Shown here one piece after another: positions 816-24,523 of a stretch of 64,000 nucleotides of DNA. Position 1 is the stretch's first letter, and each line of letters starts with the position of its first letter. The notes under the pieces are model-generated. The model worked only from the letters and a program-made list of their open reading frames with translations, was not told the DNA's origin and ran no database searches. A program made the position numbers and the translations under genes. This DNA comes from Moraxellaceae bacterium (GTDB lineage Bacteria; Pseudomonadota; Gammaproteobacteria; Pseudomonadales; Moraxellaceae), in assembly GCA_029267635.1 (NCBI GenBank), contig JAJUIK010000011.1, positions 1 through 64,000 on the forward strand. The letters run 5' to 3'.

Positions 816-3773
816 TTAAAGATGGTACACAATCATCATATACATCAAAAATTTAAACACGCCTAAGGCTGTTGAATCTTTACACTTGAAAGAAAACCTA
901 ATTCGATTTTCATCCTCGTTTAGATTGAAATTTTGTGGCTGTAATTTTAAACCTTGTAATGTGTTTTTAAGCTGCTCCTTGCTCTGTTGCGAAAGCTCTA
1001 GATGAAGATATTTTTTGGGGAATAGGCTGTTAATAAAAGACAGAAATTTTTTTAATTGGCGTTTTTCATTAAGATCAAAAACGAACTGAGATGAATTGGG
1101 CTGAACTTTTTCAAGATAACTCGTGTAGATAGCATTGAGCTGTTTTTGATATTTTCGATGTACAGCTGGAAATCGTTTTTGGACGTAATGGATGATCTTT
1201 TTTTCTTCTTTATTGGTCGGTAGCATCGTGACTAGAGCTTCGGGAGATTTTCTTAAAAAATCTGTAGTAAACAGCTTGGAGGATTTTTTTTGGTTTATAC
1301 AGGACGTTTTTAAGTGTAAAGCTCTGGCACGAAATTTTTGCGCTATTTGTAAAGGAATGGCTTCAGGCAACAAGAGGTCACCTTCCTTGGCTGTTGCCAG
1401 AATATGATGTAGCAGCTCAAAAGTCATTTCGGAGTCATGTGCTCCCAGCATCAGTGAATCGATTGACTGCTGTTGCTTGGCTTGATATTGATGATCATGT
1501 TGCTTATAACGATCTTTAGTGAGTTGATCAAATAAAAACTGTTTGATCGCCCGTTGCTGGACAGGGTATTTAACTGCATCATTACATTTCAGAATATTGT
1601 AATAGGCCTCTTTGGAGATCGGGCTTTGTATTTCATTCAGCTGATAGCTAATAGCCAAGTGCATTAAATGCAGATAGCTTGAGCAAGTCGTTTCAGGTGT
1701 AAGGTGTCCAGCAAAATGGGAGAGGGCGTACCAAGTCTGTTGAGTATTTCTGTTTCGTAGTAACGCGTAACGGATGCGTAGTTGCTCATGCGGAGTATAG
1801 TCAGTAAATGCGTCAGCAAGTGGTGAGTGTTTTAAAATCAGATAGAGATGATTAAATGCCGAATGGCGCAGGTTATGATAAGTAAAACTGTGCTCTCCAA
1901 AAATCGGCTGGATCAGTTGTTTCAGCAGCGAGTTCACTTCATTTTCATGACTTTCCTCCAGTGACTGTTTTAAAAACAGTGGCTGCGCAAATGATTTCCC
2001 TTGTTCTTTCAGTAGACGTTTTCTATTTAGGCTGTAGGCTTTGAATGCTCCCAACTCATCTGCTTTGAGTAGGTGATGCAGAGGAATTTTCCGGTAAGCT
2101 GAAAAGCTTTTTTGATTTTTATTGCGATTGTTGCGAATGGTAAGAATAACCGCATCCTCGGTAATCAGCAGATCACGTACGAAAACATTCAATGTTTCAT
2201 TAATCCGCAACCCGGCTCTGAACCCTAGGATAAAAATCAGTTCAAACATATTCTTATCCCGAACTGAGATGCCCTGTGCATTTTCAAGCTGTTGCTTCAT
2301 GCTGTGATAAAGATGCGGCGAGATCAATGCGGTTCTGCAAATTTTTGCTTGGATTAAATTATCCAGATTTACAGTGGGTGTCTGAAAAAATAAGGTCTGC
2401 TTGTGATGAAATTCACTCAGCCGTTTTTGCACAGTTGCTCGAGTCGTTTCTTTCTTAAGCAGAAGAATTTCCCCATAGAGATCTTCAAAATCAGCACTTG
2501 AGAATGATGAAATATCTTTGTCTTGCGTTGCCTGCAGCCAATGGACTGCGAACTGTGCAAACATGGTACTCAGGGAACTTTGTCTGACAGGCTGAAAATC
2601 CGCCCGTATAAGATTGCGCTCAAGTCGTTGCTGATGCTGGACAATTTGATTGAGGCGGTCCAGTTGTGTTTGCGTTAGTTCTGAACGCAGGATGATCCAC
2701 AAAAGCAAACGTTCCAGAACAGTGGGGAGTTTTCTTTCATACAATTTAATGATTTGATCTATATAGTTTTTTTTACGAATGGCTTGACGTACTTCAGCTA
2801 AAATTTCTGCTATATCTGTTTCAATATTGGCAGTAGATAGGACTTGATGGTTTTTAATAATATTCTTAATCGCAGTAGTATGTCCTTGCCCAGATTGAAC
2901 AAAATAAGTTTCTAATTGCTTTTCTAGAGGGCTAGAACTGTAAATGTCATTTTTTAAAATGGAAATCGACATTTGATCCAAACCGCAATTTTTTAGGAAT
3001 TGCGTATAGTAAAAACCGTATTTTAAAAGGTCTTTATAACGTACCTTTTCGTCTGGAAAACATTCGGTGATGCAATCGTTGATGATTTGTTCTGCATCAT
3101 TAATATCTAAAAATAAATCAAATTCCTGATGCTTTAGTCTGTAGATCCAGCATTTAACAATATCATGCAGCACAAATGTTTTCGTATAGCTGACTGAAAA
3201 ATCCGGGTCCTTTATACGCTGATTACCGAAACGCCGATTCGGGATTTCTAGTGAAATAATATGATTCAGGTTTAAGAAATTTTGAAATTTATCTGTTTTT
3301 AAAATGATTGTTAAAAACTTTTGTAGTTCAGTATCGTTATAAATGCCATTAAATAATATTGTACTGATCAAACAGAAACCGAGTGATTGAGTCGGACTGA
3401 AGTCATTATGCTGTGCCCAGTGATCAATCATATTTTTGGCAAATTGAGTAACTCTTTTACCATGTTTTAATGTTTCAATATTTTGTTGAGGTGGAGTCCT
3501 TTCGTGCCTCACGGGTGTGGAGGGTACTGAATAGTTTTGATTCGATGACAGATTAAAACGCTTGATATATTTCGCAAATTCTAGACGTGCCATTTGGTAG
3601 CTACGGATATTGGATTTATAGTGCTCTAAAAGCTGATTATCAACTTGTTGACAAATTTCATGATAGTTTTCTGGTGTCAGTTCTTTGCATTTCTCGCTAA
3701 ATAATTTCAGAAGAAATGCTTTGTGTTTTCTATGTTTTTCTATTCGTTTTTGGGAATGTGGATGTTTGCTCAT
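816..3773 (-). CDS. Very large tyrosine recombinase, third gene of a recombinase trio
   Basis: The 985-residue protein carries a tyrosine recombinase (phage integrase superfamily) catalytic core at about residues 500-700. Box I is GFRAGLRINE (Arg near 522), box II is HNLRHSA (near 635), then HFAGH (near 687) and a nucleophile candidate in SSYLH (near 698). All core residues are therefore present. It is two to three times longer than ordinary integrases: a roughly 480-residue N-terminal region and 280 extra C-terminal residues have no recognisable domain. The start overlaps the stop of the upstream 726-residue gene by 4 bases, implying translational coupling. It is the last gene of a minus-strand operon. 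Likely role: DNA strand exchange for the element. The family is clear; the specific element type is not. Confidence 0.8.
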   Translation of the reverse strand: MSKHPHSQKRIEKHRKHKAFLLKLFSEKCKELTPENYHEICQQVDNQLLEHYKSNIRSYQMARLEFAKYIKRFNLSSNQNYSVPSTPVRHERTPPQQNIETLKHGKRVTQFAKNMIDHWAQHNDFSPTQSLGFCLISTILFNGIYNDTELQKFLTIILKTDKFQNFLNLNHIISLEIPNRRFGNQRIKDPDFSVSYTKTFVLHDIVKCWIYRLKHQEFDLFLDINDAEQIINDCITECFPDEKVRYKDLLKYGFYYTQFLKNCGLDQMSISILKNDIYSSSPLEKQLETYFVQSGQGHTTAIKNIIKNHQVLSTANIETDIAEILAEVRQAIRKKNYIDQIIKLYERKLPTVLERLLLWIILRSELTQTQLDRLNQIVQHQQRLERNLIRADFQPVRQSSLSTMFAQFAVHWLQATQDKDISSFSSADFEDLYGEILLLKKETTRATVQKRLSEFHHKQTLFFQTPTVNLDNLIQAKICRTALISPHLYHSMKQQLENAQGISVRDKNMFELIFILGFRAGLRINETLNVFVRDLLITEDAVILTIRNNRNKNQKSFSAYRKIPLHHLLKADELGAFKAYSLNRKRLLKEQGKSFAQPLFLKQSLEESHENEVNSLLKQLIQPIFGEHSFTYHNLRHSAFNHLYLILKHSPLADAFTDYTPHEQLRIRYALLRNRNTQQTWYALSHFAGHLTPETTCSSYLHLMHLAISYQLNEIQSPISKEAYYNILKCNDAVKYPVQQRAIKQFLFDQLTKDRYKQHDHQYQAKQQQSIDSLMLGAHDSEMTFELLHHILATAKEGDLLLPEAIPLQIAQKFRARALHLKTSCINQKKSSKLFTTDFLRKSPEALVTMLPTNKEEKKIIHYVQKRFPAVHRKYQKQLNAIYTSYLEKVQPNSSQFVFDLNEKRQLKKFLSFINSLFPKKYLHLELSQQSKEQLKNTLQGLKLQPQNFNLNEDENRIRFSFKCKDSTALGVFKFLMYMMIVYHL

Positions 3774-5950
3774 GCAATAGTTATTCCTGTAAACGTAGCC
3801 ATGCTTTTAAGCTCTAAGCTTTGGATCAGCTTGTCTTGTGCTGTTCTAATTTGATTTAAATCGGTTGCCTGAAAACCGGAATAGCGGTCAAACAGTTCCT
3901 GCATCGCTTCATCGTGGCCAAAGATGCCCTTAAGGACATCTTCATTGCAGTATTGTGCAAAAAAATAGCGAGAAAAATGACGGGTCCAATTGCGCTGCAA
4001 GGCTATTTCAGCACAGTATTTTTGAATATCAGCGAGCTGTAAATTTCGGATATATCCCTGAGGTTCATAAAATAAAAGAAATGGGCGTTCGCCATCGAAG
4101 ACTTCCTGAATAGCCTGTACTTTTTCTTGAGGAAGACTGGCTCTCATAAGATGCTGAAATTGTTTTAAATAATCTAGGTAATACTGTATTTCATTGCGAA
4201 GAAAATCATTAAAAGCTAGGTAGCGTCCAATGGTACCTGAATAGCGTTGCTCTTTATCCGCTGCAGCTAATATACGATTGTCGAGATCAATATAGTCCAA
4301 ATTGGGTGGAAAGGATTCGCTCGGCCGTGCAGAGGTCATGATCATGCAAACATGCCAGAGCCAGATGGAATAATGATTCAAGGTCTGAAAGGGATTAGGA
4401 TTATTCCGAACTTGCTTGTCAAGTTGGTGGAAAAAAGACTGAACGAATGGAAGATCAGGTGTCTGCTGACTACCGAAACTAATTGAAGATTTAAACTCTT
4501 CAATATAGCTACTGTCGAGCTGAGGGCAAATCAGATCAAGTGTTTGGGTATAAATATCCAGGATATCAACAATTCTCGTTGAAAAGTAATGACATGGAGT
4601 GTAGTGATTAACGCTTTCGCCATTGAGTAATTTACTTTCCAGTTCATATCCCAGTTCGTTCAACGTAATATCACTGATTAAACGAGGAAGATTTTGAGCT
4701 GTTAAATGAAAAGTAAGGCCGTCACTGATTTTACGTAAATGTTTTTTTACTTTAGAAGTAATATCAGCTTTATTCCATTTTTTTAGTTGAGAAATCTGAT
4801 AAAAATAAACTTTGGGTAAGGGGATTGTAAAAGAATTGCCTATATTCAGCATATATTCTTTTAATACAGCATCTTTAAATTTGGAGTTGTCGAAGCTTTG
4901 TCGAAAATAGCAATTTTTAGGACTAAAAGTGATTTCTTTGCTTTTTGAACTCAGACGGAAATGTTTTCGAAATACCAATAGCTCTTCATAATGTGTGAAA
5001 CTGAGCACTGAAAATAAAAGCAAGGCATGAATTGGAGAATCCTCTGCTTGTTCAAATAAAATTCGCATAATGTACTGTGCAGTCGGCAAATCAAACACAC
5101 GTGGATTCGGTTTGTTCATTAAAGCATTCTTGTTTTGATGCAGAATTTTGTTCTTGAGATTAATGACTTGAGCAGTAACAGAACGTTGCTCTAATCCAGT
5201 AAATTCAAAGTTATGATCTTCAACTGTTTCAATGATTTTATCTTCGCGTGATTGTTTAGCCGTACCCTGTTCAAACTTGGTCTGATGCGTTTGCTCATCA
5301 TCGAGAGTCATTCTTGATGTCTTGTAAACATCTGTTTGGGGAGGTTCTTGGACGCTTGAATTAACTTGACGGTGTCTTTTTTGACGCTCTGATTGAGTAT
5401 ATGCATATTGATAGATGACACGAATATCTGCCAGTTGGCCAATCTGCTCTTTACTTAGACTTTGCTGTGAACGGTTTAGCAGTTCTTTATTTTCTTGCTC
5501 TTTTTTGTTTATAAAATCAATTAGATCCTCTAATTCTAGCGGCAGAGAGGGTAAAAAATTATAGAGCCAATAATATTTTTGCTTCGTACTGGCTAAACGG
5601 AAGCGCATACAAAGATTAGCTATGGTTGTTGCGTGCTCTTTGCTGTCGAGCAATTCAATACAATGGGTATTAAAAATAGCCCACTTGAGCGCGTTTGATT
5701 GGTGCGCGGATGGCGTGTTGATCAGGGCGAAGAGATAATGAATGAGCGGATATTCACTGATTAATGTATCAGTAAGCTGTTGAGTCATAATATTTTTAAG
5801 TTCAATAACTTGTATAATCTGAATGAAATCATTGAGCTTGATAGGACTTTGATAGTCTTCCAGTTTTGCTTCAGCCAGCGATTGATAGAAGTCCCTAAAT
5901 GGTTTCAGTTTGAGCGTTTGGGTATCTTCTAAAAAGTTATATCCGTTCAT
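3770..5950 (-). CDS. Second large tyrosine recombinase of the trio
   Basis: The 726-residue protein has a C-terminal tyrosine-recombinase core: TSARPSES (Arg near 540), RHFSRYFF (His-x-x-Arg near 658), GHDEAMQELF, and RYSGF with the candidate Tyr near 689. The first ~450 residues are unrecognised and contain a polar, low-complexity stretch around residues 160-245. It overlaps its neighbours by 4 bases on both sides, so the three genes are one translationally coupled operon. Two distinct, apparently intact recombinases in one operon resemble recombinase-in-trio and Tn554-like (TnpA/B/C) organisation, although the lengths fit neither well. The two proteins may form a heteromeric recombinase. 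Confidence 0.75.
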   Translation of the reverse strand: MNGYNFLEDTQTLKLKPFRDFYQSLAEAKLEDYQSPIKLNDFIQIIQVIELKNIMTQQLTDTLISEYPLIHYLFALINTPSAHQSNALKWAIFNTHCIELLDSKEHATTIANLCMRFRLASTKQKYYWLYNFLPSLPLELEDLIDFINKKEQENKELLNRSQQSLSKEQIGQLADIRVIYQYAYTQSERQKRHRQVNSSVQEPPQTDVYKTSRMTLDDEQTHQTKFEQGTAKQSREDKIIETVEDHNFEFTGLEQRSVTAQVINLKNKILHQNKNALMNKPNPRVFDLPTAQYIMRILFEQAEDSPIHALLLFSVLSFTHYEELLVFRKHFRLSSKSKEITFSPKNCYFRQSFDNSKFKDAVLKEYMLNIGNSFTIPLPKVYFYQISQLKKWNKADITSKVKKHLRKISDGLTFHLTAQNLPRLISDITLNELGYELESKLLNGESVNHYTPCHYFSTRIVDILDIYTQTLDLICPQLDSSYIEEFKSSISFGSQQTPDLPFVQSFFHQLDKQVRNNPNPFQTLNHYSIWLWHVCMIMTSARPSESFPPNLDYIDLDNRILAAADKEQRYSGTIGRYLAFNDFLRNEIQYYLDYLKQFQHLMRASLPQEKVQAIQEVFDGERPFLLFYEPQGYIRNLQLADIQKYCAEIALQRNWTRHFSRYFFAQYCNEDVLKGIFGHDEAMQELFDRYSGFQATDLNQIRTAQDKLIQSLELKSMATFTGITIA

Positions 5951-6537
5951 GATTTAATCCCCGCAAGAATTTTATCTAACGATAATCGGCTGTTATGGGT
6001 AGTAATTAAACTTGCAGGACTCTTAGATTTTGGGAGTTCAGTGAGTTCTCGTAAAAACTCATGGCTTAAGCTTCTATGGCCAAAAACTTCTCGCAGGTGA
6101 GCTGGTAAATATTGCTCATTCAGCCAATGTGCAATGACATCTAAGCCAGTAATGGAACGATGGAGGCCGGAATTGAGCAATATTTTTACTTCGTTTAAGG
6201 CATTAATGATGCACTCATATGAATTATTTTTTTCATAAGCTCTAAACTTTAATTCGTTTTTTTCTTTTGAGAAATAACAATAGATCCATGTGAAATGACT
6301 GCTAAAAAAATAATGATCCGGTTTGTTATTGGCCATAAGAGGGATTTCTACCTTCTGTTTTAAAGCGAAATCTAAAAGGTAATCTTGCATTTTTGTACTG
6401 AGTTGTACAAATAAAGAAATCCATATTTGATATGCAGGCATGCATTTTGGATAACACATTAACTCTATGTTTTTTGCAGCTACTCGGTAATTTGGTATGC
6501 TTTTATCTTTTACAGACATACAATTATGCTTCCCCAT
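5947..6537 (-). CDS. Small third protein of the recombinase trio
   Basis: The 196-residue protein (190 if the second ATG at 6519 is used) has no confident domain. Its C-terminal part, AHWLNEQYLPAHLREVFGHRS, recalls the LGH box of tyrosine recombinases, but no full catalytic set is visible, so it may be a degenerate or accessory recombinase relative. GGGGAAG lies about 9 bases before the ATG at 6519, which makes that the better-supported start. It is the first gene of the trio and overlaps the next by 4 bases. The phased repeat array at 6729-6826 lies about 200 bp upstream. The function is inferred from context only. Confidence 0.6.
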   Translation of the reverse strand: MGKHNCMSVKDKSIPNYRVAAKNIELMCYPKCMPAYQIWISLFVQLSTKMQDYLLDFALKQKVEIPLMANNKPDHYFFSSHFTWIYCYFSKEKNELKFRAYEKNNSYECIINALNEVKILLNSGLHRSITGLDVIAHWLNEQYLPAHLREVFGHRSLSHEFLRELTELPKSKSPASLITTHNSRLSLDKILAGIKS

Positions 6538-8995: not shown

Positions 8996-10591
8996 ATGAA
9001 TTTTATTGATGCAATAGGTGTATTGTCTAAGTCTTCTTCTTACGCTGTTTCCACAGAAAATGATCTTGATGCAGAATTGTCTTCAATAAAATCAGATCTA
9101 TATGTTGTGATGCCAATCGAAGAGCATCTTTTTGAATTGATAAATTCTGTAACTGAGGACTCCAAAAAAGTTATATTTCTTTGTGGTAGTAGTGGTGATG
9201 GAAAATCTGAGCTCTTATTGAGAGCACGAGAAAAATTTAGTCAAACCTATATAAAATTTCATTTAGATGCTACACATAGTTTTGCTCCACATGATTCTGC
9301 TGTTGATACTTTAAATAAGTTATTTGATGAGTATGAAGTTGGGAATCATTCACTAGTAATTGCAATCAATATTGGAATGTTGGGGAACTATGCAGCCGAA
9401 GCAAAAAATAAGGAAATTGGTTCTATCCTTAAAAAATATTTAGAAGAGAAACGAGCTTCTGAAGGCTATGAATTTTTAAGCTTTGAAGATTACCCAAAAT
9501 TCAAAATTACTGAAGATGGGTATGAGGCTGAATTTGTCACTAAGTTACTTGCTAGAATTACGGCTCCTAATTCATTGTTATACAAAAGTTATATTGCTCA
9601 AGTAGCTAATAAAAATAATACAAGTCAACAACAAATAAAACTTGTTAATTATAAATTGTTATGTGATCAAAATATTCAAAAAGTAATTGTCGAATTACTT
9701 TTTAAGATTAGATTGTTTAATAATCAATTTATTACTGCCCGAAATTTTTTAGATTTTATTTATGAACTTATATGCGGTAAAAAATATTTATTTGATAATC
9801 TATTTGGTGAGTCTGATAATGAATTATTGGAAAAGATAAGAGAGTTTGATCCCATACTTCTGAGAACAAAAGCTATTGATCGCTTTATCATTTCATTTGA
9901 ATTGAATACTACTAATGATAGGTTAGAAGAGTATAAAAAATATTTGCAAGATTCATTAAATATAGAAAGATTAGATAGTGCTACATCATACATTCGCTTG
10001 TTCTATTTATTGAAATTTTCTACTATTAGCAACGATTATCATCTAGATTTCAAAGAAGACTTTATAGAGAATCTACTAATAAATTACTTAGAAGTGTATC
10101 GTCATCATAGGTATTACGATGCAGATACATCCAAGCCTATACTTAAAAATTTTTATTCTAAAGATTTAATTTATGCTATAAGAAATTATATCAATAAAAA
10201 GGCACCTTATTTAGAAGAAGATCAATATTTAATTTCTAATTATGGGGATAGTCAAATTATTTCTAATTTAAAAATTACTCCTAATTTTAATGAGATAATG
10301 AAATATAGTCATCAGCAATTATGTGTAAAATTTAATGGTTTTTTGAAAATCAAAGATCATGGAAATATGAATATAACAATTGATATTAATCTATTTGAAT
10401 TGCTATTTAAATTGAAGTCAGGATATAGGCCAAGAAAAAATGATCGTAATGTGGTGGTCGTTTTAAATACTATTGTGAATAGACTACTAGTCCTTGCAAA
10501 TCAATCAACCCAAATCACAGTAAAGACCAAAGAACAGAGCTTTCGTTTAACTGTTGAAGATGATGAAATCGAAGTGGCAGGTATTAAATGA
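8996..10591 (+). CDS. dptF: DNA phosphorothioation-dependent restriction protein DptF
   Basis: The 531-residue P-loop ATPase has Walker A GSSGDGKS at residues 64-71 and the DptF-type N-terminus (MPIEEHLFELI followed by the nucleotide-binding strand FLCGSSGDGK). DptF acts with DptG and DptH as the restriction arm of type I Dnd systems, damaging DNA that lacks phosphorothioate. It is the first gene of a plus-strand operon: its stop overlaps the dptG start (ATGA at 10588). An AAGG Shine-Dalgarno-like motif precedes the ATG. The length fits the family, and strong AT bias marks it as island DNA. Family call from motif plus operon context. Confidence 0.9.
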   Translation: MNFIDAIGVLSKSSSYAVSTENDLDAELSSIKSDLYVVMPIEEHLFELINSVTEDSKKVIFLCGSSGDGKSELLLRAREKFSQTYIKFHLDATHSFAPHDSAVDTLNKLFDEYEVGNHSLVIAINIGMLGNYAAEAKNKEIGSILKKYLEEKRASEGYEFLSFEDYPKFKITEDGYEAEFVTKLLARITAPNSLLYKSYIAQVANKNNTSQQQIKLVNYKLLCDQNIQKVIVELLFKIRLFNNQFITARNFLDFIYELICGKKYLFDNLFGESDNELLEKIREFDPILLRTKAIDRFIISFELNTTNDRLEEYKKYLQDSLNIERLDSATSYIRLFYLLKFSTISNDYHLDFKEDFIENLLINYLEVYRHHRYYDADTSKPILKNFYSKDLIYAIRNYINKKAPYLEEDQYLISNYGDSQIISNLKITPNFNEIMKYSHQQLCVKFNGFLKIKDHGNMNITIDINLFELLFKLKSGYRPRKNDRNVVVVLNTIVNRLLVLANQSTQITVKTKEQSFRLTVEDDEIEVAGIK

Positions 10592-11878
10592 GCTTAGATT
10601 TAAAGTTGAAAGTCGAAAAAAACAACAGCATGGCCAAATTCTATCCGATCAGCACTCGAGGAGAAAGCAAGTTATTTAATTGGGATGCTTTAACACATCT
10701 CTTTATTTGTGAAATTTACGGTCTTGATATCTTTAAGAAGTCTAAATTAGAGCAAACGGTAAGGGATTTTGAAGATCAATGTAAATCACATTTCATTGAA
10801 TTATTAGATGATCCTCGAGCCTGGGATTATCTTTATAAAATTTATTTTGAAGAAAAAAATTTAACGTTAATTTCTCCTAAATTATGTGTCTATTCTCATT
10901 TAAATCAGATCAATAGTAAAAATATAGAGAAAAGGTTCTTAGGGCTATTAAAGACCATTCTTAAATCAGGAAATATTTATCAAGCGCATTCAAACCAACT
11001 AAATTTTTTGGAAAAAATTATCACAAAATCTTTTGATGATAAATTTACAACAAATGCTCCGAGTGAAAATGATTTCGTGAATTATTTTCCAAATCTAGCT
11101 AATATTTATGCTGAAGATTTAGAGTTCCTTACCAAGCATCCAAAATATTTTATTGAGAATATTCAACTTTTTATACAAATTTATATGTGTGTTTATACAT
11201 CACAATTATCATTAACAATCAATAGTTGGCAAAGTTTTAAAGATGAACATAATTTAGAGTGTTACTTTATTTTAGATTCTGAAAAGGCGAGTCAAGAACG
11301 TAATCTTCTTTTTCAAAGAGGTTATAGGGATGTAGAAAAAGGGTTAGGCTCAATTTTTCCAATTCTTGCAATGACTGAAAGTTTACAAAATAGTTTAGAG
11401 GGAAAAAAACCTTTATGGGAATTTTATCATCGCAGGCATGAGATCAATTTACAGGAGCTCGTCAAATATTGCCAGGATTTTGCAAATGCTCGTAAATTGC
11501 AATTAAAAAGTGAGCATATTAGCACTCATGAAGAAGCATTTATAGAGTTAGCATATTTGTTTAAAGAGCAGTTTTCTAAAACTACTGATCGATCTAGTCG
11601 AAATGATAATGTAATTAAGGATATTAAAAATATTGTATTAAAACCATTTGTACAAACACGTGGCCGGGCGGGAAGTCTATTTGTATTAAATCAAGAATAT
11701 CTTTTGTTATTAACTAATCTCGTAATTGGTGAGAAAGAGCAATTAAGGCTATATGAGTTGATAATAGGCTTTAATAAAAGAGGGATCTTTTTTGATCGAG
11801 AAAGTTATAAAGCTTTAGTTATATTTTATGAAAGATTGGGTAATATTGAAAAGTTGAGTGACAGTGGGGATGCGATTT

Positions 11879-11898
<20 letters not shown>
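10588..11898 (+). CDS. dptG: DNA phosphorothioation-dependent restriction protein DptG
   Basis: The 436-residue protein starts MSLDLKLKVEKNNSMAKFYP and lies between dptF and dptH, overlapping both (4 bases with dptF, about 20 with dptH). DptG is the small non-ATPase partner of the DptFGH restriction complex and is required for restriction in characterised enterobacterial systems. No catalytic motif is visible, as usual for this family. The call rests on position, length (family about 400-450 residues) and overall resemblance. Translation is probably coupled throughout the operon. Confidence 0.85.
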
Positions 11899-17131
<5,233 letters not shown>

Positions 17132-17143
17132 ATCTTTTTCAAG

Positions 17144-17168
17144 AGGAGCTTTTAAAGCTCCTTTTTTC
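17144..17168. terminator. Bidirectional terminator between dptH and the HEPN-like gene
   Basis: AGGAGCTTT and AAAGCTCCT form a 9-bp stem with T residues on the plus side and A/T-rich flanks, placed between convergent genes. Confidence 0.75.
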
Positions 17169-17169
17169 T

Positions 17170-17952
17170 TTAATTTTCAAATAAAGTTAGTTGTGAATTA
17201 TCTGAATTAAAATCTGTATGAAGTATATATGCATATTCAGAAGGGGCTAGATATTTAATTAACTCATTATCTTTAAAAACTTCAAAATAATAATGATTCT
17301 TCAGGTAAATGTGTAAAATAAATTGTAATGAGTATAAACAAATTCTTGATGCAATTTTAATTAAATCGAGTTGGGGACTAAAGGGTTCGTTGTTCTCATC
17401 TGGATAGGGGAACTCTAAGCTGCCGTGAGCAAAGGTGTTCCTTAATTCATATACAAGAATTAGTCCTAAACCAGCTATACCTTCTTCTGATAATTTTAAT
17501 TTGTTTGCTATATTTTCTTGCTTCAAAAAATCAAATGCTAATATTTTGAATTGACATACATTGTGTAGATAATCCTCAATTATCTTTGATTGTTCTAAAT
17601 TTTTATTTAGATAAAAGGCAATATTTCGAATTTTTCCTCTTATGTGTTTGACAGGGTGATTAGGTGGTTTGATTGCATCTATAATTGCTTCAATTGAGCA
17701 CCAAATAAAATTAAAAATAGACAATTCTCTTGTAAATTTTTTTAATAACTTTTCATTAGCTTCATCGTATTCATAAGCTGCATTGCATTTAAACCATAAT
17801 GAATCATATTTATCGATGTTAATTTCAATACTTTCAACTGAAGAGGCTAATAATAACCAATCACATGTAAGAATGAAATTATTGTTGCTGGAACAAATTA
17901 AAAACTCTCTCAATCTATAACAATGTTCTTGAAGAGATAGAATTCCAGACAT
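17170..17952 (-). CDS. HEPN-like protein with an RX4H motif, candidate RNase toxin
   Basis: The 260-residue protein has no family I can name with certainty. It is predicted mostly helical and contains VYELRNTFAH at residues 167-176, that is R-N-T-F-A-H, matching the RX4-6H signature of HEPN ribonucleases with the usual Asn after Arg. HEPN proteins occur as toxins and abortive-infection effectors. It is the second gene after an XRE regulator (20-bp gap), an arrangement common in toxin-antitoxin pairs. It sits inside the dnd-dpt locus, convergent with dptH. Function as an RNA-cleaving effector is inferred; a structural HEPN role is also possible. Confidence 0.6.
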   Translation of the reverse strand: MSGILSLQEHCYRLREFLICSSNNNFILTCDWLLLASSVESIEINIDKYDSLWFKCNAAYEYDEANEKLLKKFTRELSIFNFIWCSIEAIIDAIKPPNHPVKHIRGKIRNIAFYLNKNLEQSKIIEDYLHNVCQFKILAFDFLKQENIANKLKLSEEGIAGLGLILVYELRNTFAHGSLEFPYPDENNEPFSPQLDLIKIASRICLYSLQFILHIYLKNHYYFEVFKDNELIKYLAPSEYAYILHTDFNSDNSQLTLFEN

Positions 17953-17972
17953 GTTTGGCTCCTTGTTATGTA

Positions 17973-18233
17973 TTAATTGTTCTTGTTTAAATTTTGAAGC
18001 TGTGAGAAGAAATCAGATATTGAAAGACCGAAAGCATTACATATTTTATATACGGTATCTATTCGGCATGTTGCTTTCCCATTTTCTATATCTGAGAGTT
18101 GTCGTGTAGAAATACCGATCGAATAAGATAAAGTTTCTTGTTTATCACCGGCATCAACTCTTAATTTTTTTACTAATTTCCCAAAATCATTAACAAAGAT
18201 ATCGATTTTGTCGCTGTCAATATTATTACTCAT
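17973..18233 (-). CDS. XRE-family helix-turn-helix regulator
   Basis: The 86-residue protein has a Cro/C1-type HTH at about residues 16-70: FGKLVKKLRVDAGDKQETLS, then ISTRQLSDIENGKATCRIDT and LSISDFF. It is divergent from the AIPR gene and immediately upstream of the HEPN-like gene. The start ATG is only 9 bp from a perfect 40-bp palindrome. This resembles controller proteins of restriction systems or antitoxin-type autoregulators. It probably represses both its own operon and the AIPR gene. Confidence 0.85.
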   Translation of the reverse strand: MSNNIDSDKIDIFVNDFGKLVKKLRVDAGDKQETLSYSIGISTRQLSDIENGKATCRIDTVYKICNAFGLSISDFFSQLQNLNKNN

Positions 18234-18242
18234 TTTGATATT

Positions 18243-18282
18243 TACATGAAGTATAGTTCATATATGAACTATACTTCATGTA
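18243..18282. promoter_or_regulatory. Perfect 40-bp palindromic operator between the XRE and AIPR genes
   Basis: TACATGAAGTATAGTTCATA is followed directly by its exact reverse complement, with no loop, centred between 18262 and 18263. A TATACT hexamer suitable as a -10 occurs once on each strand within it (18270-18275 on plus). Two overlapping face-to-face promoters are therefore likely, and a dimer pair of the XRE protein could block both. It contains one GTTC and one GAAC tetramer. Confidence 0.85.
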
Positions 18283-18335
18283 CGTTTATTTCGGAAGCCT
18301 ATATCTTGTTTATACGAATTAAACAGGAGAAAAAC

Positions 18336-19526
18336 ATGAAATACGAATTTGAAGTAAAAACCTATAAGGATCTTGGTAATCCTTATGGTAAAGATGGTCA
18401 AAAGATGGTTTATCTTTTTGTGCACGCCAAAGATTTGCCTAAAGATTTATCATTTGGTCCAAACCCTCGTGAACAGAATATGAAAACGTCTGTTGCAAAA
18501 AAAATTATTGGAAGTTTGCATGAAGGAACTGAACAGTTCTATGTGAAAAATCGTGGGATTACAATTCATGCAAAAGATATTAAATTTATTCCGTCTAAAT
18601 CTATAGTAGAACTTGATTTGCCAGAAAATGAGATGTACGGAGTTTTGGATGGGGGGCATTCATATAGGGCTATTTTGGAAAATCGAATGATTGAGAAAGA
18701 TGGCGGAGAGGAATGGGTAAATGAATTTGTGAAAATTGAAGTAATTATCGGAGCTGAAGAGTATTTTGAGCAGTTGGCAGCATCACGAAATACATCAGTT
18801 CAAGTAACTGATAGTACAATTGCTGAATTAGAAAAAAAATTCGATTTCATTAAGGATGTCCTAAGTAAAAAACCATATTTCGACAAAATTTCATTTAAGC
18901 AAAATGAGCAAAAGGATATCGAAGTTATTGATATTCTAAGATTGATGTATGCTTTTAATTTGGAGAAGTTTCCTGATCACACTAGCGTAGGAGTATCTGC
19001 TTATACTTCTCCTAAAGCTGTTTTAAATGATTTTTTAGCTGATATAAAAAAGGCAGAAGCAACTAATTCTAAAAGTGAATATGAAGCGATTGCCAAAATT
19101 CTACCTGAAATTATTGAGCTTTATGACTTAATTGAAAAAGAAGCTGGGCTTAAATATAAGGAGGCTACTAAAACTGGTAAATATGGAGCAATTAAAGGTG
19201 TGGATGGGACTGAGGGAGATAAAAAACATTATTCAAAATTTTTCGGTGAGAAAATTGATTACAAGAGTCCAATAGGTTTTATTTTTCCAATCATTTCATC
19301 TTTTAAAGCCCTTGTAGATAAAGATGAGCATGGGAACTACAGTTGGATTTGTGATCCTAAAGAAGCTTGGGGTAAGAATGGTGCAACTTTAATGGAGGCA
19401 ACAGTTGAGCGTTCTACTTCTCTGGGATCTAATCCACAATCAACTGGTAAGGATTCGGGGTTGTGGAAACAAAATTTATCCGTGAATTTTATTACGGCTT
19501 TAACTGAAAAAGCTAAGAAAGTCTAA
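18336..19526 (+). CDS. AIPR-family (abortive infection/phage resistance) protein
   Basis: The 396-residue product starts at the ATG at 18336, preceded by AGGAGA; the open frame extends 30 codons further upstream, but that part overlaps the palindromic operator and lacks a ribosome site. Motifs fit the AIPR family: FYVKNRGITI near residue 68, then GVLDGGHSYRAI with DGGH at 105-108. This DGGH motif recalls the DGQHR motif of DndB in the same locus. AIPR proteins occur in abortive-infection loci; their biochemical activity is poorly defined. It is divergent from the XRE-HEPN pair and convergent with dndE. A link to the Dnd system is inferred from position. Confidence 0.75.
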   Translation: MKYEFEVKTYKDLGNPYGKDGQKMVYLFVHAKDLPKDLSFGPNPREQNMKTSVAKKIIGSLHEGTEQFYVKNRGITIHAKDIKFIPSKSIVELDLPENEMYGVLDGGHSYRAILENRMIEKDGGEEWVNEFVKIEVIIGAEEYFEQLAASRNTSVQVTDSTIAELEKKFDFIKDVLSKKPYFDKISFKQNEQKDIEVIDILRLMYAFNLEKFPDHTSVGVSAYTSPKAVLNDFLADIKKAEATNSKSEYEAIAKILPEIIELYDLIEKEAGLKYKEATKTGKYGAIKGVDGTEGDKKHYSKFFGEKIDYKSPIGFIFPIISSFKALVDKDEHGNYSWICDPKEAWGKNGATLMEATVERSTSLGSNPQSTGKDSGLWKQNLSVNFITALTEKAKKV

Positions 19527-19540
19527 TCTTTAAAAAAATT

Positions 19541-19569
19541 AAGGCAAGCCATTTAGGCTTGCCTTTTTA
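19541..19569. terminator. Bidirectional terminator between the AIPR gene and dndE
   Basis: AAGGCAAGCC pairs with GGCTTGCCTT around a 5-base loop and is followed by T residues; A-rich sequence on the other side allows use by dndE as well. Confidence 0.8.
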
Positions 19570-19570
19570 T

Positions 19571-19930
19571 TTATATATTAGCAATTAAACTTTCAGAAGT
19601 TTTATACCGAACGGACATAGCCCCAACACCTCTATGAATGTGTCCACGCATTCGATCAAGAAGTACTTTATTTTCTAAAGGTTCTTCTTGATTATCTTCC
19701 ACATATCTAAGAAGTGATAAGAAAAGATCTGTATTTTCACCTGTGAGGGTATAGGCATTGAATTCAGAGCCATCCTCATTAGGTAATGGAATATTACCTA
19801 ACGGACCTTCTTCTAATGACATCATGAGTGCAATACGACAAAGCAAATTTGGCGTTAAACCTGTACGTTGTTTCAGCATACGAAGACGAGTGGTTGCCTC
19901 AGATGAAATTTTAAGCTTGCTGTAATGCAA
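19571..19930 (-). CDS. dndE: DNA sulfur modification protein DndE
   Basis: The 119-residue basic, helical protein starts MHYSKLKISSEATTRLRMLK and contains LCRIALMMSLEEG, the usual DndE pattern. DndE is a small tetrameric DNA-binding protein, reported to prefer nicked DNA, and is needed for phosphorothioate incorporation together with DndC and DndD. It is the last gene of the minus-strand dndBCDE operon and overlaps dndD by 20 bases. The length is typical (about 110-130). Confidence 0.9.
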   Translation of the reverse strand: MHYSKLKISSEATTRLRMLKQRTGLTPNLLCRIALMMSLEEGPLGNIPLPNEDGSEFNAYTLTGENTDLFLSLLRYVEDNQEEPLENKVLLDRMRGHIHRGVGAMSVRYKTSESLIANI

Positions 19931-21914
19931 TTCTCTTCTCCGTATTGGTGCGTTTCAGATCAGTAAAGTAACCTGTCAATGCCTGAGTAGATGCCAACTC
20001 ATGATTGTATTCAAGTAGATAACTTTCAGAAATGAACTCATCTAACTGGTTCACATAAAGATCATCAATTTCAGTATCTGTTGAAAGAATAATGACTTGA
20101 TGGCTAACGTGAGGGAAGTAAAACTTCATGAGGTTGTCACGGTGTTCACGATCTAAACGGCCAAGTGGTGTATCAACAATCATTGGCAAATGGCGACCAC
20201 TTGTTTTAGCTAGAGACCATAACATGGCAATCGCATAAATTTGCTTTTCACCAGCAGATAAAGCTGACTTTTCAACGACTTTACCATTCGCTTTAATCAA
20301 ACGTGTGTTGAAGGTTTTAGCATCAATCTGTAAATCAGTAATGAAGTTACGTTTACGCAATAATGAATTGAAAATTTCTACAAAGTTTTTGCGAACTTGA
20401 GTAATTTTCTGTTCCAGTAAGGCAGTCTCAAAATCAATAAGCGCTTTAATGCTTTTTGCGGCTAAAGAGTTCTTATGATTTTGCAATTCAAACTCGGCAA
20501 TGGCTTCGCTAGCTACTTTTAAATTCCGTTCAGCCGTCACAACTTCCCAGCTAATTTTACGGCGTTCTTCTTCTTTCTGATTTAAGATAAGATCAAGCTC
20601 ACCGAGTTTACGCTCTTTCTGTAGCAGCTCATCAAGATAAGCATTTGAGTCTTCCGCATTTTCAGCACGGGCAATTGAAAACTCTGTTGCTTCTTTTTCC
20701 TGATTTAAAATTATAAAACGTTCATATAACCCTTTGACTTGCTGTTTTAGCTCCGCATCTAAGCTCAATAGTTTAGCCAAGGTTTGCTTGGGCTCAGTTA
20801 ATTCACCAAATGCTTTGTGGGGACTTAACTGTGGTTGCTCATTAAAGTAACTGGCAAGGAACTCATTGAGATTTGTCCAATGATCTTCTTTCCAGAGTTC
20901 TTTTTTCTGGATTGAACTATTTTGGAAGGTTGTAAGTATTTGCTCAAAAAGTTGACGATTTGAAGATTGATCTGCTGATGAACCTTCTAACTGTTTTGTA
21001 AACTTAGCTATGAGCTTCGGTGCAAATAAGAAGGGAAGTAGTCCATTTGCTAAATTGACCAGTTCTTGTTTAGATACATTAATCTCTTTATTCAGTTGAG
21101 AGAGTTTGGCTTTGAGTTGGTCATATTCCAACGCAATAGCACCACCTTCTGATACAAAACGAAGTCTTTGACGTTCAATGTTTTTTAATAATGCTTGGTG
21201 TTCAAATTTAATTCGGGCGTATTCATTATTTAAGAGCTCTTCTTGAACTTTGAACTGCTCTACTTGTTGGGTAAGGAGATCAACATCATTTTTTTCAGCA
21301 TCACCAGATTTATTACGACTCAAATATGAATGTAAATCTAGGCGTAACTTTTCTATTAAATCAATGCCTAGCAGGTTTTTAATAGCATCTGATAAAGCAG
21401 CATTGTTATCTTCTGCAATATCTTGAATTTTCTCACCATCAAAGAAGAATAGCTGAGAAACTCCGATTGGGATCAATTCCAGTAGAAAATTTTCCCATTC
21501 TTGCTTTGGTACAGAGGTAACTGTTTCACCGTTTTTATGTAAATCTAAATTTTCATGTACTTGTCCATCGGACCCGATTGTCCAAGAACGGCAAACGGTA
21601 AATTCAGCAGGAATACTGCCTTCTGTATAAATGAACTTAAGCTCAATGCTGGACGTACGTTCAGGGTGATTTTGATTGGTCTTACTGAAAAGATACTGAT
21701 GATATTCTTTGTTACTAATCCCTAAACCTAATGCACGCTTACCGTATAAGGCCAGGCGTACGGAGTCTAAGAATGTAGTTTTACCAGCACCATTTCTGCC
21801 GCCAATCAGAATAATTGGCCGACTAGTAATAGATGATTTTTTAGGTTCAAGTGAAAATTCAGTATGCTGACTGTATAAACCAATATTATCTAAAATTAAA
21901 GATTTGATAATCAT
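19911..21914 (-). CDS. dndD: DNA sulfur modification ATPase DndD
   Basis: The 667-residue SMC/Rad50-like ATPase has Walker A GGRNGAGKTT at residues 38-47, long coiled-coil segments in the middle (about 200-500), the ABC signature LSAGEKQ near 551 and Walker B MIVDTPLGRLD near 578. DndD hydrolyses ATP and is thought to open or nick DNA during sulfur insertion with DndC and DndE. It overlaps dndC by 4 bases (21911-21914) and dndE by 20. Length and motif order match the family. Confidence 0.93.
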   Translation of the reverse strand: MIIKSLILDNIGLYSQHTEFSLEPKKSSITSRPIILIGGRNGAGKTTFLDSVRLALYGKRALGLGISNKEYHQYLFSKTNQNHPERTSSIELKFIYTEGSIPAEFTVCRSWTIGSDGQVHENLDLHKNGETVTSVPKQEWENFLLELIPIGVSQLFFFDGEKIQDIAEDNNAALSDAIKNLLGIDLIEKLRLDLHSYLSRNKSGDAEKNDVDLLTQQVEQFKVQEELLNNEYARIKFEHQALLKNIERQRLRFVSEGGAIALEYDQLKAKLSQLNKEINVSKQELVNLANGLLPFLFAPKLIAKFTKQLEGSSADQSSNRQLFEQILTTFQNSSIQKKELWKEDHWTNLNEFLASYFNEQPQLSPHKAFGELTEPKQTLAKLLSLDAELKQQVKGLYERFIILNQEKEATEFSIARAENAEDSNAYLDELLQKERKLGELDLILNQKEEERRKISWEVVTAERNLKVASEAIAEFELQNHKNSLAAKSIKALIDFETALLEQKITQVRKNFVEIFNSLLRKRNFITDLQIDAKTFNTRLIKANGKVVEKSALSAGEKQIYAIAMLWSLAKTSGRHLPMIVDTPLGRLDREHRDNLMKFYFPHVSHQVIILSTDTEIDDLYVNQLDEFISESYLLEYNHELASTQALTGYFTDLKRTNTEKRIALQQA

Positions 21915-23404
21915 GGATTAACTCCAGCGTTATTTAATAAATCTAACTGACCTGAAGAAATTTCTTCTGCGAAAGATGATTCCTCATCCTCTATTTCAAT
22001 GATTTCATTGATATCTTGATCAGAATTGCTAGCGGCGAGAATTGTGGCTAAATCTCTCCATTCTTCATTGAGCACTTTGCTTAACTGGCTATGAATGTTA
22101 TGGCGTCGTTTAAGACCATGGGAAGCTTTTTCAACTCCAATCAGTTTCACCATTAGTTCCGTTGGAATGTCATGTTGTTTACAGATTGAATCAAGTAAAG
22201 CAAAGTCTTGTGTATTATATAAGACGCTATCCTCAATTTCCCAATCTAAATCGACTTCTAAGGTGTCTCTTACAATTTGTGGAACTGAATCAGCCCAATC
22301 TCCACTTTCAGAACGCCATAAACGCCGAATTTCATGTAATTCTGCAGGATGAATCAGAACCGGTGCTTCACCAATCGGTGCTTCAGTTTGTACTTGTTTT
22401 TGGACTTCTAAGAGTTTTCTGAGAAGTTCTTTACGGAATTCGAGTTTATAAGGACCAGGTACTAATTTTCCATTTGCGTGGTTAAAGGCAACTTGACCAT
22501 TACGACGTTTAAATTCACGATAGATAAATTTTTTTTCAGGATCTTGCGTTGAAGAAAGTAAATCACGGTACTCCAGTAAAGGCTCTAACCACTCTTCACC
22601 AGATTCAACCATAGCCTCCATTGACTTGTCCTGTTGGACTACTGTGCATACCCAGCAACCAAAGCGTGAATTACCGCAACTCGGCGTAGTTTTGTCTACT
22701 ACGAGAGGGCACTCACCAGCTTGAGCATTTCTATACATAGTTACAAGTTCACGGTTGTCATTATTCCATGGAGACTTGTTCTGTAATAAATAATTCCATA
22801 CATCATCAGTAGTGAATGCTTCAATTGGAGCAAATACAAACGCATTTAGTAAAGACGAGTGACGGGCAAGTTTTGTGCCTTTAATTTTATGCATTGCGAT
22901 CACTTGTGCACGGGTCGCACTTTCTGCAGAACGCACACCTAAGACAACAACCACCTCACCAAATTCAGCTACACGTTGTGTAATAAAGTCATTTGCCGGT
23001 TCAATCTTAAGTCGTTCAGTACACCAGCGGAATTTATTGCTTGGTGCAGGATAGCCACGGCCAATCAGGTTTACCCAAAATGAACGTTCTACTCGAGGGC
23101 TGACCTTTTGTACAATAAAAGGCATTCCTTGTTCATTAGACTTTTGCTGAATATTTTCTAAGTTTTTATCAATATATCGAACAATAATAGGTGTTTCTAC
23201 AAGAGTGTCAGAACTAATTACATATATAGGTTTTTGTCTTTGCTCACTCGGTAGTTTCGCTACAGCATTCCATACCAGTTGCAAAGCACAAGTTGAGTCC
23301 TTACCACCAGAGTAGCCAACGACCCATGGTCTTTGATCTGATAAATAGACTTCCTGGATAGATTCATATACATCTTTTAAAGAATTGGTCTCAAAAAAGC
23401 TCAT
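21911..23404 (-). CDS. dndC: DNA phosphorothioation sulfurtransferase DndC
   Basis: The 497-residue protein belongs to the PAPS-reductase/ATP-pyrophosphatase group. The PP-loop SGGKDST is at residues 32-38, and a cysteine cluster (CPLVV...PSCGNSRFGCWVC, about 231-252) is suited to the [4Fe-4S] cluster known in DndC. DndC activates the DNA backbone with ATP and transfers sulfur delivered by a cysteine desulfurase. The gene lies directly after dndB and overlaps dndD by 4 bases. No dndA desulfurase gene is in the window; IscS is known to replace DndA in other gammaproteobacteria. Confidence 0.93.
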   Translation of the reverse strand: MSFFETNSLKDVYESIQEVYLSDQRPWVVGYSGGKDSTCALQLVWNAVAKLPSEQRQKPIYVISSDTLVETPIIVRYIDKNLENIQQKSNEQGMPFIVQKVSPRVERSFWVNLIGRGYPAPSNKFRWCTERLKIEPANDFITQRVAEFGEVVVVLGVRSAESATRAQVIAMHKIKGTKLARHSSLLNAFVFAPIEAFTTDDVWNYLLQNKSPWNNDNRELVTMYRNAQAGECPLVVDKTTPSCGNSRFGCWVCTVVQQDKSMEAMVESGEEWLEPLLEYRDLLSSTQDPEKKFIYREFKRRNGQVAFNHANGKLVPGPYKLEFRKELLRKLLEVQKQVQTEAPIGEAPVLIHPAELHEIRRLWRSESGDWADSVPQIVRDTLEVDLDWEIEDSVLYNTQDFALLDSICKQHDIPTELMVKLIGVEKASHGLKRRHNIHSQLSKVLNEEWRDLATILAASNSDQDINEIIEIEDEESSFAEEISSGQLDLLNNAGVNP

Positions 23405-24523
23405 TTAGACCGTCTCCTTAGTAAGTGTATCTTCTTGGCTTGCATGTAGTGAGTTGAATAGTAGATTTTCGACTCGTTGTGCTTCAGGACTCAACGAAAT
23501 CCCTAATGTTTTCTGAAGATGATTGGTGACTAAAATGAGATTATTGCGTGATTTGTTTATTTTTCCTGCAACCAATGCACGACCATACCAAACTTTTAGA
23601 TTATTTCTAGACCAGTCAATATAGATTAATTTATTGAGTTTAGATTCCCAGTTGTCTGGATATTGTGTGAGTAAAATATTACCTAATTTACCGAGAGCCT
23701 GAACTGCAATGCCATGAGCATGAATATAATTGTTCCTTAACTCAGCTGCCGTGATTTTACCTTCTAAAAGATTTAACCAGCCTGGAATATATTCAATTAC
23801 ACAGCTCCAGAATTTGGTAGCAATTAGAACCTGTTCTTCATGGGTAGCTTCTTGTGGAAAATCACTTAAGAGTTGTTTAGTTGCCTGATGTAAGGAACTA
23901 AATGTAAATAAATTAGTTGTTCTGTTAGATAAACTGGATTTTTCAAAGTCGGTAAATTCTCTGAATAGTTCAATATTTTCAATTACCGCTTTAGTTATAT
24001 TTGATTGTTCATCTCTATGGTTAAAGAGTAACTTAATAGATTGAGCTGGCTTTACTGCATGCATGTTTAGGTCAGCGAACATTTGCTGAGAACGTTTTAG
24101 CCCCTGGTCCGCATAAACCACCACAGAAATAGTTTCATTTCCTAGATGAGGGCGGTGCTTCAGCGCTTCCTCTATAGCCGCTCTTCTATGTTGGCCATCA
24201 TTAATTAAAACAGTAGCATCCATTGAAATTTTTAACTTACCTAAATTACTTGAAAGATCATTAGGCTCAAATACAACTTCTCCATCTACACATGCACAAA
24301 GAGACGAAAGTATGTATTCGTCAGGATTATCAATAATATATCTACTTATTTGAGGGATTCTTGTTTTATTTAATGTGCGTTGAGCACGCATTGAGGGTGG
24401 TAAAGAGTCATCATCAAATTTAAAAAATTTAGGTACAACCTTGAGAGGAACCATAATGATGTAAAAGGCTTTACGAGCTTGTAGGCCTTGTATTGCTATG
24501 AATTCGAACCAATTCCCGTCCAT
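23405..24523 (-). CDS. dndB: DNA sulfur modification protein DndB (DGQHR domain)
   Basis: The 372-residue protein has the family hallmark INDGQHRRAAIEEA with DGQHR at residues 109-113. DndB is dispensable for modification in studied systems but acts as a transcriptional regulator of the dnd operon and influences which sites are modified. It is the first gene of the dndBCDE operon, with dndC starting right after its stop. Upstream, a TATAAT -10 candidate and two direct repeats suggest an autoregulated promoter. Confidence 0.9.
   Translation of the reverse strand: MDGNWFEFIAIQGLQARKAFYIIMVPLKVVPKFFKFDDDSLPPSMRAQRTLNKTRIPQISRYIIDNPDEYILSSLCACVDGEVVFEPNDLSSNLGKLKISMDATVLINDGQHRRAAIEEALKHRPHLGNETISVVVYADQGLKRSQQMFADLNMHAVKPAQSIKLLFNHRDEQSNITKAVIENIELFREFTDFEKSSLSNRTTNLFTFSSLHQATKQLLSDFPQEATHEEQVLIATKFWSCVIEYIPGWLNLLEGKITAAELRNNYIHAHGIAVQALGKLGNILLTQYPDNWESKLNKLIYIDWSRNNLKVWYGRALVAGKINKSRNNLILVTNHLQKTLGISLSPEAQRVENLLFNSLHASQEDTLTKETV

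What the first reader, a model, noticed from the sequence alone, without database searches (positions are those of the whole stretch)
17170..19526. HEPN/XRE/AIPR cassette embedded between dptFGH and dndBCDE
Seen: a HEPN-like gene with an RX4H motif and an XRE gene in one operon, divergent from an AIPR-family gene, with a perfect 40-bp palindrome between. The cassette sits exactly between the convergent restriction and modification operons and has terminators on both outer sides, so it is a self-contained unit. Known: HEPN proteins and AIPR proteins occur in abortive infection, and XRE proteins act as antitoxins or controllers. Inference: a second-line suicide module guarding, or triggered by failure of, the phosphorothioate system. 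I do not know of this three-gene combination as a described system.
Basis: partly seen in the sequence, partly recalled or inferred. Interest (0 to 1): 0.85.

Follow-up and report, generated by a model that had tools for sequence, protein, structure and literature searches.

The report
Phosphorothioate-linked HEPN plus XRE–AIPR cassette
Between the two halves of a bacterial DNA-sulfur immunity system sits a small cargo of three genes, made of two modules that each turn up beside DNA-sulfur systems in unrelated bacteria, which suggests a recurring, still undescribed back-up effector rather than a fixed three-gene system.

Summary
The three genes, the XRE/AIPR divergence and the perfect 40-bp palindrome are real. 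Two details change: AIPR starts at 18336, not 18246, and the left terminator belongs to dptH. The trio was found in no other genome. It is a composite. (1) XRE–AIPR is a widespread divergent pair (at least 41 loci, none with this HEPN protein) that joined phosphorothioate (PT) genes at least four separate times. In three Clostridia it sits with dndBCDE and no dndFGH was detected. (2) The 260-aa protein belongs to a rare family absent from Pfam, NCBIfam and PADLOC. All three readable members lie in PT loci: next to dptH here, straight after sspH, and between sspB and sspC. AIPR is modelled with high confidence and matches the DndB/GmrSD-N/ParB fold group. The dptH–dnd interval in related genomes is a variable cargo slot that usually holds such a ParB-type protein plus a candidate effector. 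Best reading: a PT-associated accessory effector cassette with a HEPN-like effector, a ParB-fold AIPR partner or sensor, and an XRE autoregulator. HEPN RNase activity is unproven: fold unconfirmed, catalytic Arg lost in one homologue. Suicide effectors at PT loci were already proposed (Makarova 2012; Rakesh 2024), so this is a new variant of a known kind.

The parts
17170..17952 (-). 260-aa HEPN-like protein (motif LRNTFAHG); member of a rare PT-system-associated family with no Pfam/NCBIfam/PADLOC model
   Evidence: homologues L009 (BLASTP 2e-13), L153 and L154 (1.4e-48, 2.5e-46); alignment
17973..18233 (-). 86-aa XRE/HTH_3 regulator, first gene of the XRE-HEPN pair; best NCBIfam model couple_hipB/Y4mF antitoxin (below its cut-off)
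   Evidence: 20-bp gap to HEPN, which has its own AAGGAG ribosome site
18243..18282 (.). perfect 40-bp palindrome; contains two 12-bp dyads GAASTATASTTC (18248-18259, 18266-18277), probable double operator of XRE over the divergent promoters
   Evidence: no other site in the 2.45-Mb genome; similar dyad TGAACTATAGTTCA in the L107 XRE-AIPR intergenic
18336..19526 (+). 396-aa AIPR protein (PF10592), corrected start; DGGH motif; fold similar to DndB / GmrSD-N / ParB
19541..19565 (.). bidirectional terminator shared by AIPR (+) and dndE (-)
17141..17165 (+). terminator of dptH (scored on + strand only)
8996..17131 (+). dptF-dptG-dptH restriction operon (DndF, DndG, DndH)
   Evidence: PADLOC 2e-181, 7e-133, 0
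19571..24523 (-). dndB-dndC-dndD-dndE modification operon (no dndA in it)

Best explanation
The cassette is accessory cargo of a phosphorothioate defence system, built from two independently PT-associated modules. The HEPN-like protein is a PT-linked effector, probably an RNase that stops growth. AIPR is a ParB/Srx-fold relative of DndB and of the SspE N-domain that most likely gates the effector or the modification machinery, sensing PT state or nucleotides. XRE binds the double operator and represses both divergent transcripts, so expression rises only when XRE is lost or titrated. The module would act as a second line when DptFGH is blocked or PT marking fails. Shown: gene identities, operator, XRE-AIPR pairing, recurrent PT linkage of each module, AIPR fold group. 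Inferred: RNase activity, gating by AIPR, repression by XRE, trigger.
For: HEPN family: only two relatives were found besides this one and L153. L009 lies directly after sspH in an SspABCD-FGH-type island; L154 lies between sspB and sspC with no gap after sspB. Window vs L154 E=2.5e-46. XRE-AIPR: divergent pair in at least 41 loci; AIPR directly beside dndB in L090, L094, L095 and within a degraded dnd patch in L119; the AIPR tree needs at least 4 separate origins of the link. AIPR model pLDDT 93.5 with Foldseek matches to a DndB-family protein (prob 1.00), GmrSD-N (0.99) and ParB proteins; hhalign to DndB aligns DGGH with DGQH, E=0.001. The same interval in related dnd loci is a variable slot holding a ParB/DGQxR-type protein in 7 of 9 cases. 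The operator is private to the cassette. Precedent for a DGQQR domain that senses PT by GTP hydrolysis and releases a nuclease: SspE (PMC9646914).
Against: The trio occurs nowhere else examined. HEPN fold not confirmed and the R of the RX4H motif is G in L154. XRE-AIPR usually lacks HEPN, so AIPR need not act on it. AIPR has DGGH, not DGQxR; Foldseek TM-scores are low (0.27-0.54) and PDB gave no match. No experimental data.
Confidence: 0.5

Rival explanations
1. XRE-HEPN is an ordinary toxin-antitoxin pair (HEPN toxin, XRE antitoxin/autorepressor) that happened to land in a defence island; AIPR is an unrelated neighbour.
For: Antitoxin-first order, 20-bp gap, HipB/Y4mF-type XRE, palindromic operator. 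An Xre-RES pair sits just upstream of dndB in Ruegeria plasmid L148.
Against: XRE's conserved partner elsewhere is AIPR, not HEPN; no XRE homologue was found beside the HEPN relatives in L009/L154, which instead are coupled to ssp genes.
Confidence: 0.15
2. XRE-AIPR is a two-gene defence or regulatory unit of its own that works with PT modification (or RM) directly, as a restriction or DndB-like control component; HEPN is a separate addition.
For: Three Clostridia genomes have XRE/AIPR beside dndBCDE and no DndH or DptF match; AIPR is common beside other RM genes (PMC2292703); fold kinship with DndB.
Against: Two of the three genomes are nearly identical at AIPR and two are metagenome bins; no activity known; in the window dptFGH is already present.
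Confidence: 0.25
3. Chance clustering: defence islands collect unrelated cargo, and the dptH-dndE gap is just a permissive insertion point.
For: The slot holds many different genes; the trio is unique; integrases and IS remnants lie in the window.
Against: The rare HEPN family is in PT loci 3 of 3 times, across Dnd and Ssp types and at different positions; AIPR gained the link at least 4 times; slot cargo is biased to ParB/DGQxR-type proteins.
Confidence: 0.1

Closest known systems
HEPN/PIN endoRNases at dnd borders (Rakesh, Aravind and Krishnan 2024, PMC10853773)
   Same: Stand-alone HEPN-type gene at the border of a PT locus, on the strand opposite to the restriction operon; proposed back-up suicide effector
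   Different: That paper names HEPN in general and does not mention AIPR (0 occurrences); this family has no library model and is paired here with XRE-AIPR
AIPR / AbiU1 family (PF10592)
   Same: Passes the Pfam cut-off by a wide margin; known to sit in RM operons; Makarova 2012 places the DndB N-terminus in this family
   Different: Divergent XRE partner with a double operator; inserted between dptFGH and dndBCDE
SspE / GmrSD (DUF262 plus HNH)
   Same: ParB/DUF262-type domain next to an effector in a PT locus; GmrSD occupies the same interval in L048 and L049
   Different: No HNH domain, DGGH instead of DGQQR, and the candidate effector is a separate HEPN-like protein
DNA phosphorothioation-associated DGQHR protein 1 (TIGR04172 family)
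   Same: Second DndB-like protein in the same slot with a small partner gene (L043, L044, L046)
   Different: Partner is a predicted membrane protein rather than HEPN-like; no XRE
C-protein or Xre autoregulated RM / toxin-antitoxin operons
   Same: Small XRE gene with two dyad operators over a divergent promoter
   Different: Controls AIPR and HEPN rather than a restriction endonuclease; binding not tested

Membership tests
HEPN superfamily | R-X4-6-H catalytic motif | tested here: inconclusive
   Present in the window (RNTFAH), L153 and L009; in L154 the R is G while N, A, H, G are invariant
HEPN superfamily | match to a HEPN profile | tested here: not met
   No Pfam/NCBIfam/PADLOC HEPN hit; weak match of a two-sequence profile to HepS 9oij over the motif, E 0.006, lost with four sequences
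HEPN superfamily | all-helical HEPN fold | tested here: inconclusive
   Model mostly helical but pLDDT 40
HEPN superfamily | RNase activity / toxicity | not testable with these tools
   Needs expression and mutants
AIPR (PF10592) | Pfam score above cut-off | tested here: met
   98.8 vs 25 bits
ParB/Srx-DndB-DUF262 superfamily | DGQxR-type motif | tested here: inconclusive
   Invariant DGGH at 105-108 in 62 homologues, aligned with DndB DGQH by hhalign; no R
ParB/Srx-DndB-DUF262 superfamily | shared fold | tested here: met
   Foldseek prob 1.00 DndB-family, 0.99 GmrSD-N, several ParB, with low TM-scores; no PDB match
SspE-type PT-sensing effector | DUF262 domain fused to HNH nuclease | tested here: not met
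   No HNH domain in AIPR or the HEPN-like protein
XRE regulator | HTH_3 domain | tested here: met
   1.8e-10, 41 bits vs cut-off 23
Type II toxin-antitoxin system | toxin gene paired with a conserved antitoxin gene | tested here: not met
   XRE pairs with AIPR in other genomes, never with this HEPN protein
PT-associated accessory module | recurrent position inside dnd/ssp loci | tested here: met
   HEPN 3 of 3 readable loci; AIPR at least 4 separate gains

The most novel reading that the evidence does not exclude
A PT-dependent defence effector in which a ParB-fold AIPR protein reads PT state or nucleotides and releases a separate HEPN RNase: a split, RNA-targeting counterpart of SspE, occupying the same cargo slot and built from parts that also serve Ssp systems.
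Probability: 0.2. Interest if true: 0.85.

Novelty: new variant of a known kind. Interest (0 to 1): 0.6.

Why it matters
It turns a general idea (suicide effectors guard PT immunity) into a named, testable family. This HEPN-like protein is undescribed in the family libraries searched, spans both Dnd and Ssp systems, and may mark PT loci. The variable dptH-dnd slot and its bias to ParB/DGQxR-type proteins give a simple place to look for further PT effectors. XRE-AIPR beside dndBCDE without dndFGH offers a candidate for the missing restriction or control partner of orphan PT modification.

Tried and rejected
HEPN searches in plasmids and phages by tblastn, viral contigs and E. coli genomes by blastn found nothing. 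The cassette DNA matches no plasmid. A single-sequence fold of the HEPN-like protein was useless and was not searched. BLASTP of AIPR against DndB gave nothing; only profile and fold comparison did. The operator occurs nowhere else in the genome, so direct control of dptF or dndB by XRE through it was rejected. AIPR as a HEPN-domain protein (as stated in Makarova 2012) was not borne out by the model matches. HepS as the closest solved relative was not kept, as the match vanished with the better profile. No paper on HepS was found.

Full report
What is there. The window holds dptF-G-H on the + strand (8996-17131) and dndB-C-D-E on the - strand (24523-19571), facing each other. Between them lie a 260-aa gene (17170-17952, -), an 86-aa XRE gene (17973-18233, -) and an AIPR gene on the + strand. 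The listed AIPR start at 18246 lies inside the palindrome. The real start is 18336, supported by an AGGAG site and by alignment to six homologues. The palindrome 18243-18282 is perfect over 40 bp, with about 1e-7 expected in 64 kb. It is made of two 12-bp dyads, GAASTATASTTC, 18 bp apart; these are the only two sites in the 2.45-Mb genome, against about one expected. A similar dyad, TGAACTATAGTTCA, lies between XRE and AIPR in L107, although that one alone is not significant; about nine of the 42 XRE-AIPR intergenic regions examined (window included) have a stronger inverted repeat than most shuffles. This fits a double XRE operator over divergent promoters. The left terminator serves dptH; the right one is bidirectional. 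No convincing direct repeats flank the cassette, although its HEPN-XRE part is lower in G+C (28-29%) than its neighbours.

The HEPN-like protein. It matches no model in Pfam, NCBIfam or PADLOC. Three relatives were found in three genome samples (order, phylum, class; partly overlapping). L009: BLASTP 2e-13. L154 and L153: 2.5e-46 and 1.4e-48. L153 is a 4.8-kb contig and says nothing about context. L009 lies directly after an sspH-type gene in an island with SspG, SspB, SspD and a DndB-like protein. L154 lies between sspB (4.8e-108) and sspC (0), followed by sspD, with its start codon right after the sspB stop. So the family is in PT loci 3 of 3 readable times, in both Dnd and Ssp types, at different positions. 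The motif ELRN[ST]xAHG is conserved, but in L154 the arginine is glycine. The fold is not established. A two-sequence profile matched HepS (PDB 9oij, with an H105A mutant 9oik) over the motif at E=0.006, but the four-sequence profile did not.

The XRE-AIPR pair. Firmicutes plasmids carry AIPR at 36-41% identity, always divergent from a small HTH gene. A scan of one genome per species returned 80 loci and viral contigs four. In at least 41 the gene immediately upstream is an XRE on the other strand; none has the HEPN-like protein. Neighbours are often RM genes. Four loci have dnd genes: L090 (XRE then dndB-C-D-E on one strand), L094 and L095 (AIPR then dndB-C-D), and L119 (AIPR in a degraded dnd patch). 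A maximum-likelihood tree of 62 AIPR proteins forces at least four separate origins of the dnd link, the window included; the shuffle test shows no clustering of the label, as expected for repeated gain. The three Clostridia genomes of L090, L094 and L095 have no DndH or DptF match, so AIPR there sits with modification genes alone. Two of them are metagenome bins, and L094/L095 are near-identical at AIPR.

AIPR's fold. With 62 sequences the model has pLDDT 93.5. The best Foldseek matches are viral AIPR-type proteins, a DndB-family protein (prob 1.00), a GmrSD N-domain protein (0.99) and ParB proteins; TM-scores are low and the PDB gave nothing. Profile comparison with DndB-type proteins gives E=0.001 and aligns DGGH with DGQH. 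Makarova 2012 already assigned the DndB N-terminus to the AIPR family, and Rakesh 2024 puts DndB in the ParB superfamily.

The slot. In nine other dnd loci of the same order (counting L050/L051 once and the truncated L049) the interval next to dptH varies: a predicted membrane protein plus a second DGQHR protein (L043, L044, L046), GmrSD (L048, L049), a GNRRL ParB-like protein plus a partner (L045, L047), HNH (L050/L051), or nothing (L052). Seven of nine hold a ParB/DGQxR-type protein besides DndB. The window fits this pattern with AIPR as the ParB-type member and the HEPN-like protein as the candidate effector. The ParB-like call for L045 and L047 rests on motif and a weak model match only.

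Mechanism. In SspE a DUF262 domain with DGQQR senses PT, hydrolyses GTP and frees an HNH nuclease (PMC9646914). I propose that AIPR and the HEPN-like protein divide such work, with XRE limiting both transcripts. The sensing, gating and RNase steps are inferred. An XRE-HEPN toxin-antitoxin pair, a stand-alone XRE-AIPR unit, and chance clustering remain rivals.

Novelty. Suicide genes in DND loci (2012) and HEPN RNases at dnd borders (2024) are published ideas. What is new here is a specific, unmodelled HEPN-like family tied to both Dnd and Ssp loci, repeated independent joining of XRE-AIPR to PT genes, and the description of the slot. Absence from the open-access library searched does not prove that nobody has described them.

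Noticed in passing
L090, L094, L095: Clostridia with dndBCDE joined to AIPR/XRE and no DndH or DptF match in the genome: AIPR may be the partner of orphan PT modification.
   Followed up: partly
L154:9004-15101: sspB, HEPN-like, sspC, sspD in one run, followed by a histidine-kinase-like ATPase and an unknown 637-aa protein; the HEPN-like copy has lost the motif arginine.
   Followed up: partly
L043, L044, L046 downstream of dndH: Predicted membrane protein paired with a second DGQHR protein in the dptH-dnd slot; a candidate membrane effector pair.
   Followed up: partly
L045:11062-13105 and L047:5148-7216: ParB-like (GNRRL) protein next to an unknown 326-327-aa protein that looks related between the two loci, in the dptH-dndE slot.
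   Followed up: no
L148:9524-10641: Xre antitoxin and RES toxin genes directly upstream of dndB on a Ruegeria plasmid.
   Followed up: no
L119:5109-7996: Split or degraded dndB, a GIY-YIG-like ORF and a DGQHR-type gene beside AIPR in Paenibacillus sambharensis, with DndFGH-type genes on another contig.
   Followed up: no
window 816-6537: Three adjacent same-strand ORFs, at least two of them recombinase-like, at the left end of the island.
   Followed up: no
window 11858-17131: DptH carries a long Pro-Glu repeat linker (about residues 1340-1375) just before its HerA-type domain.
   Followed up: no
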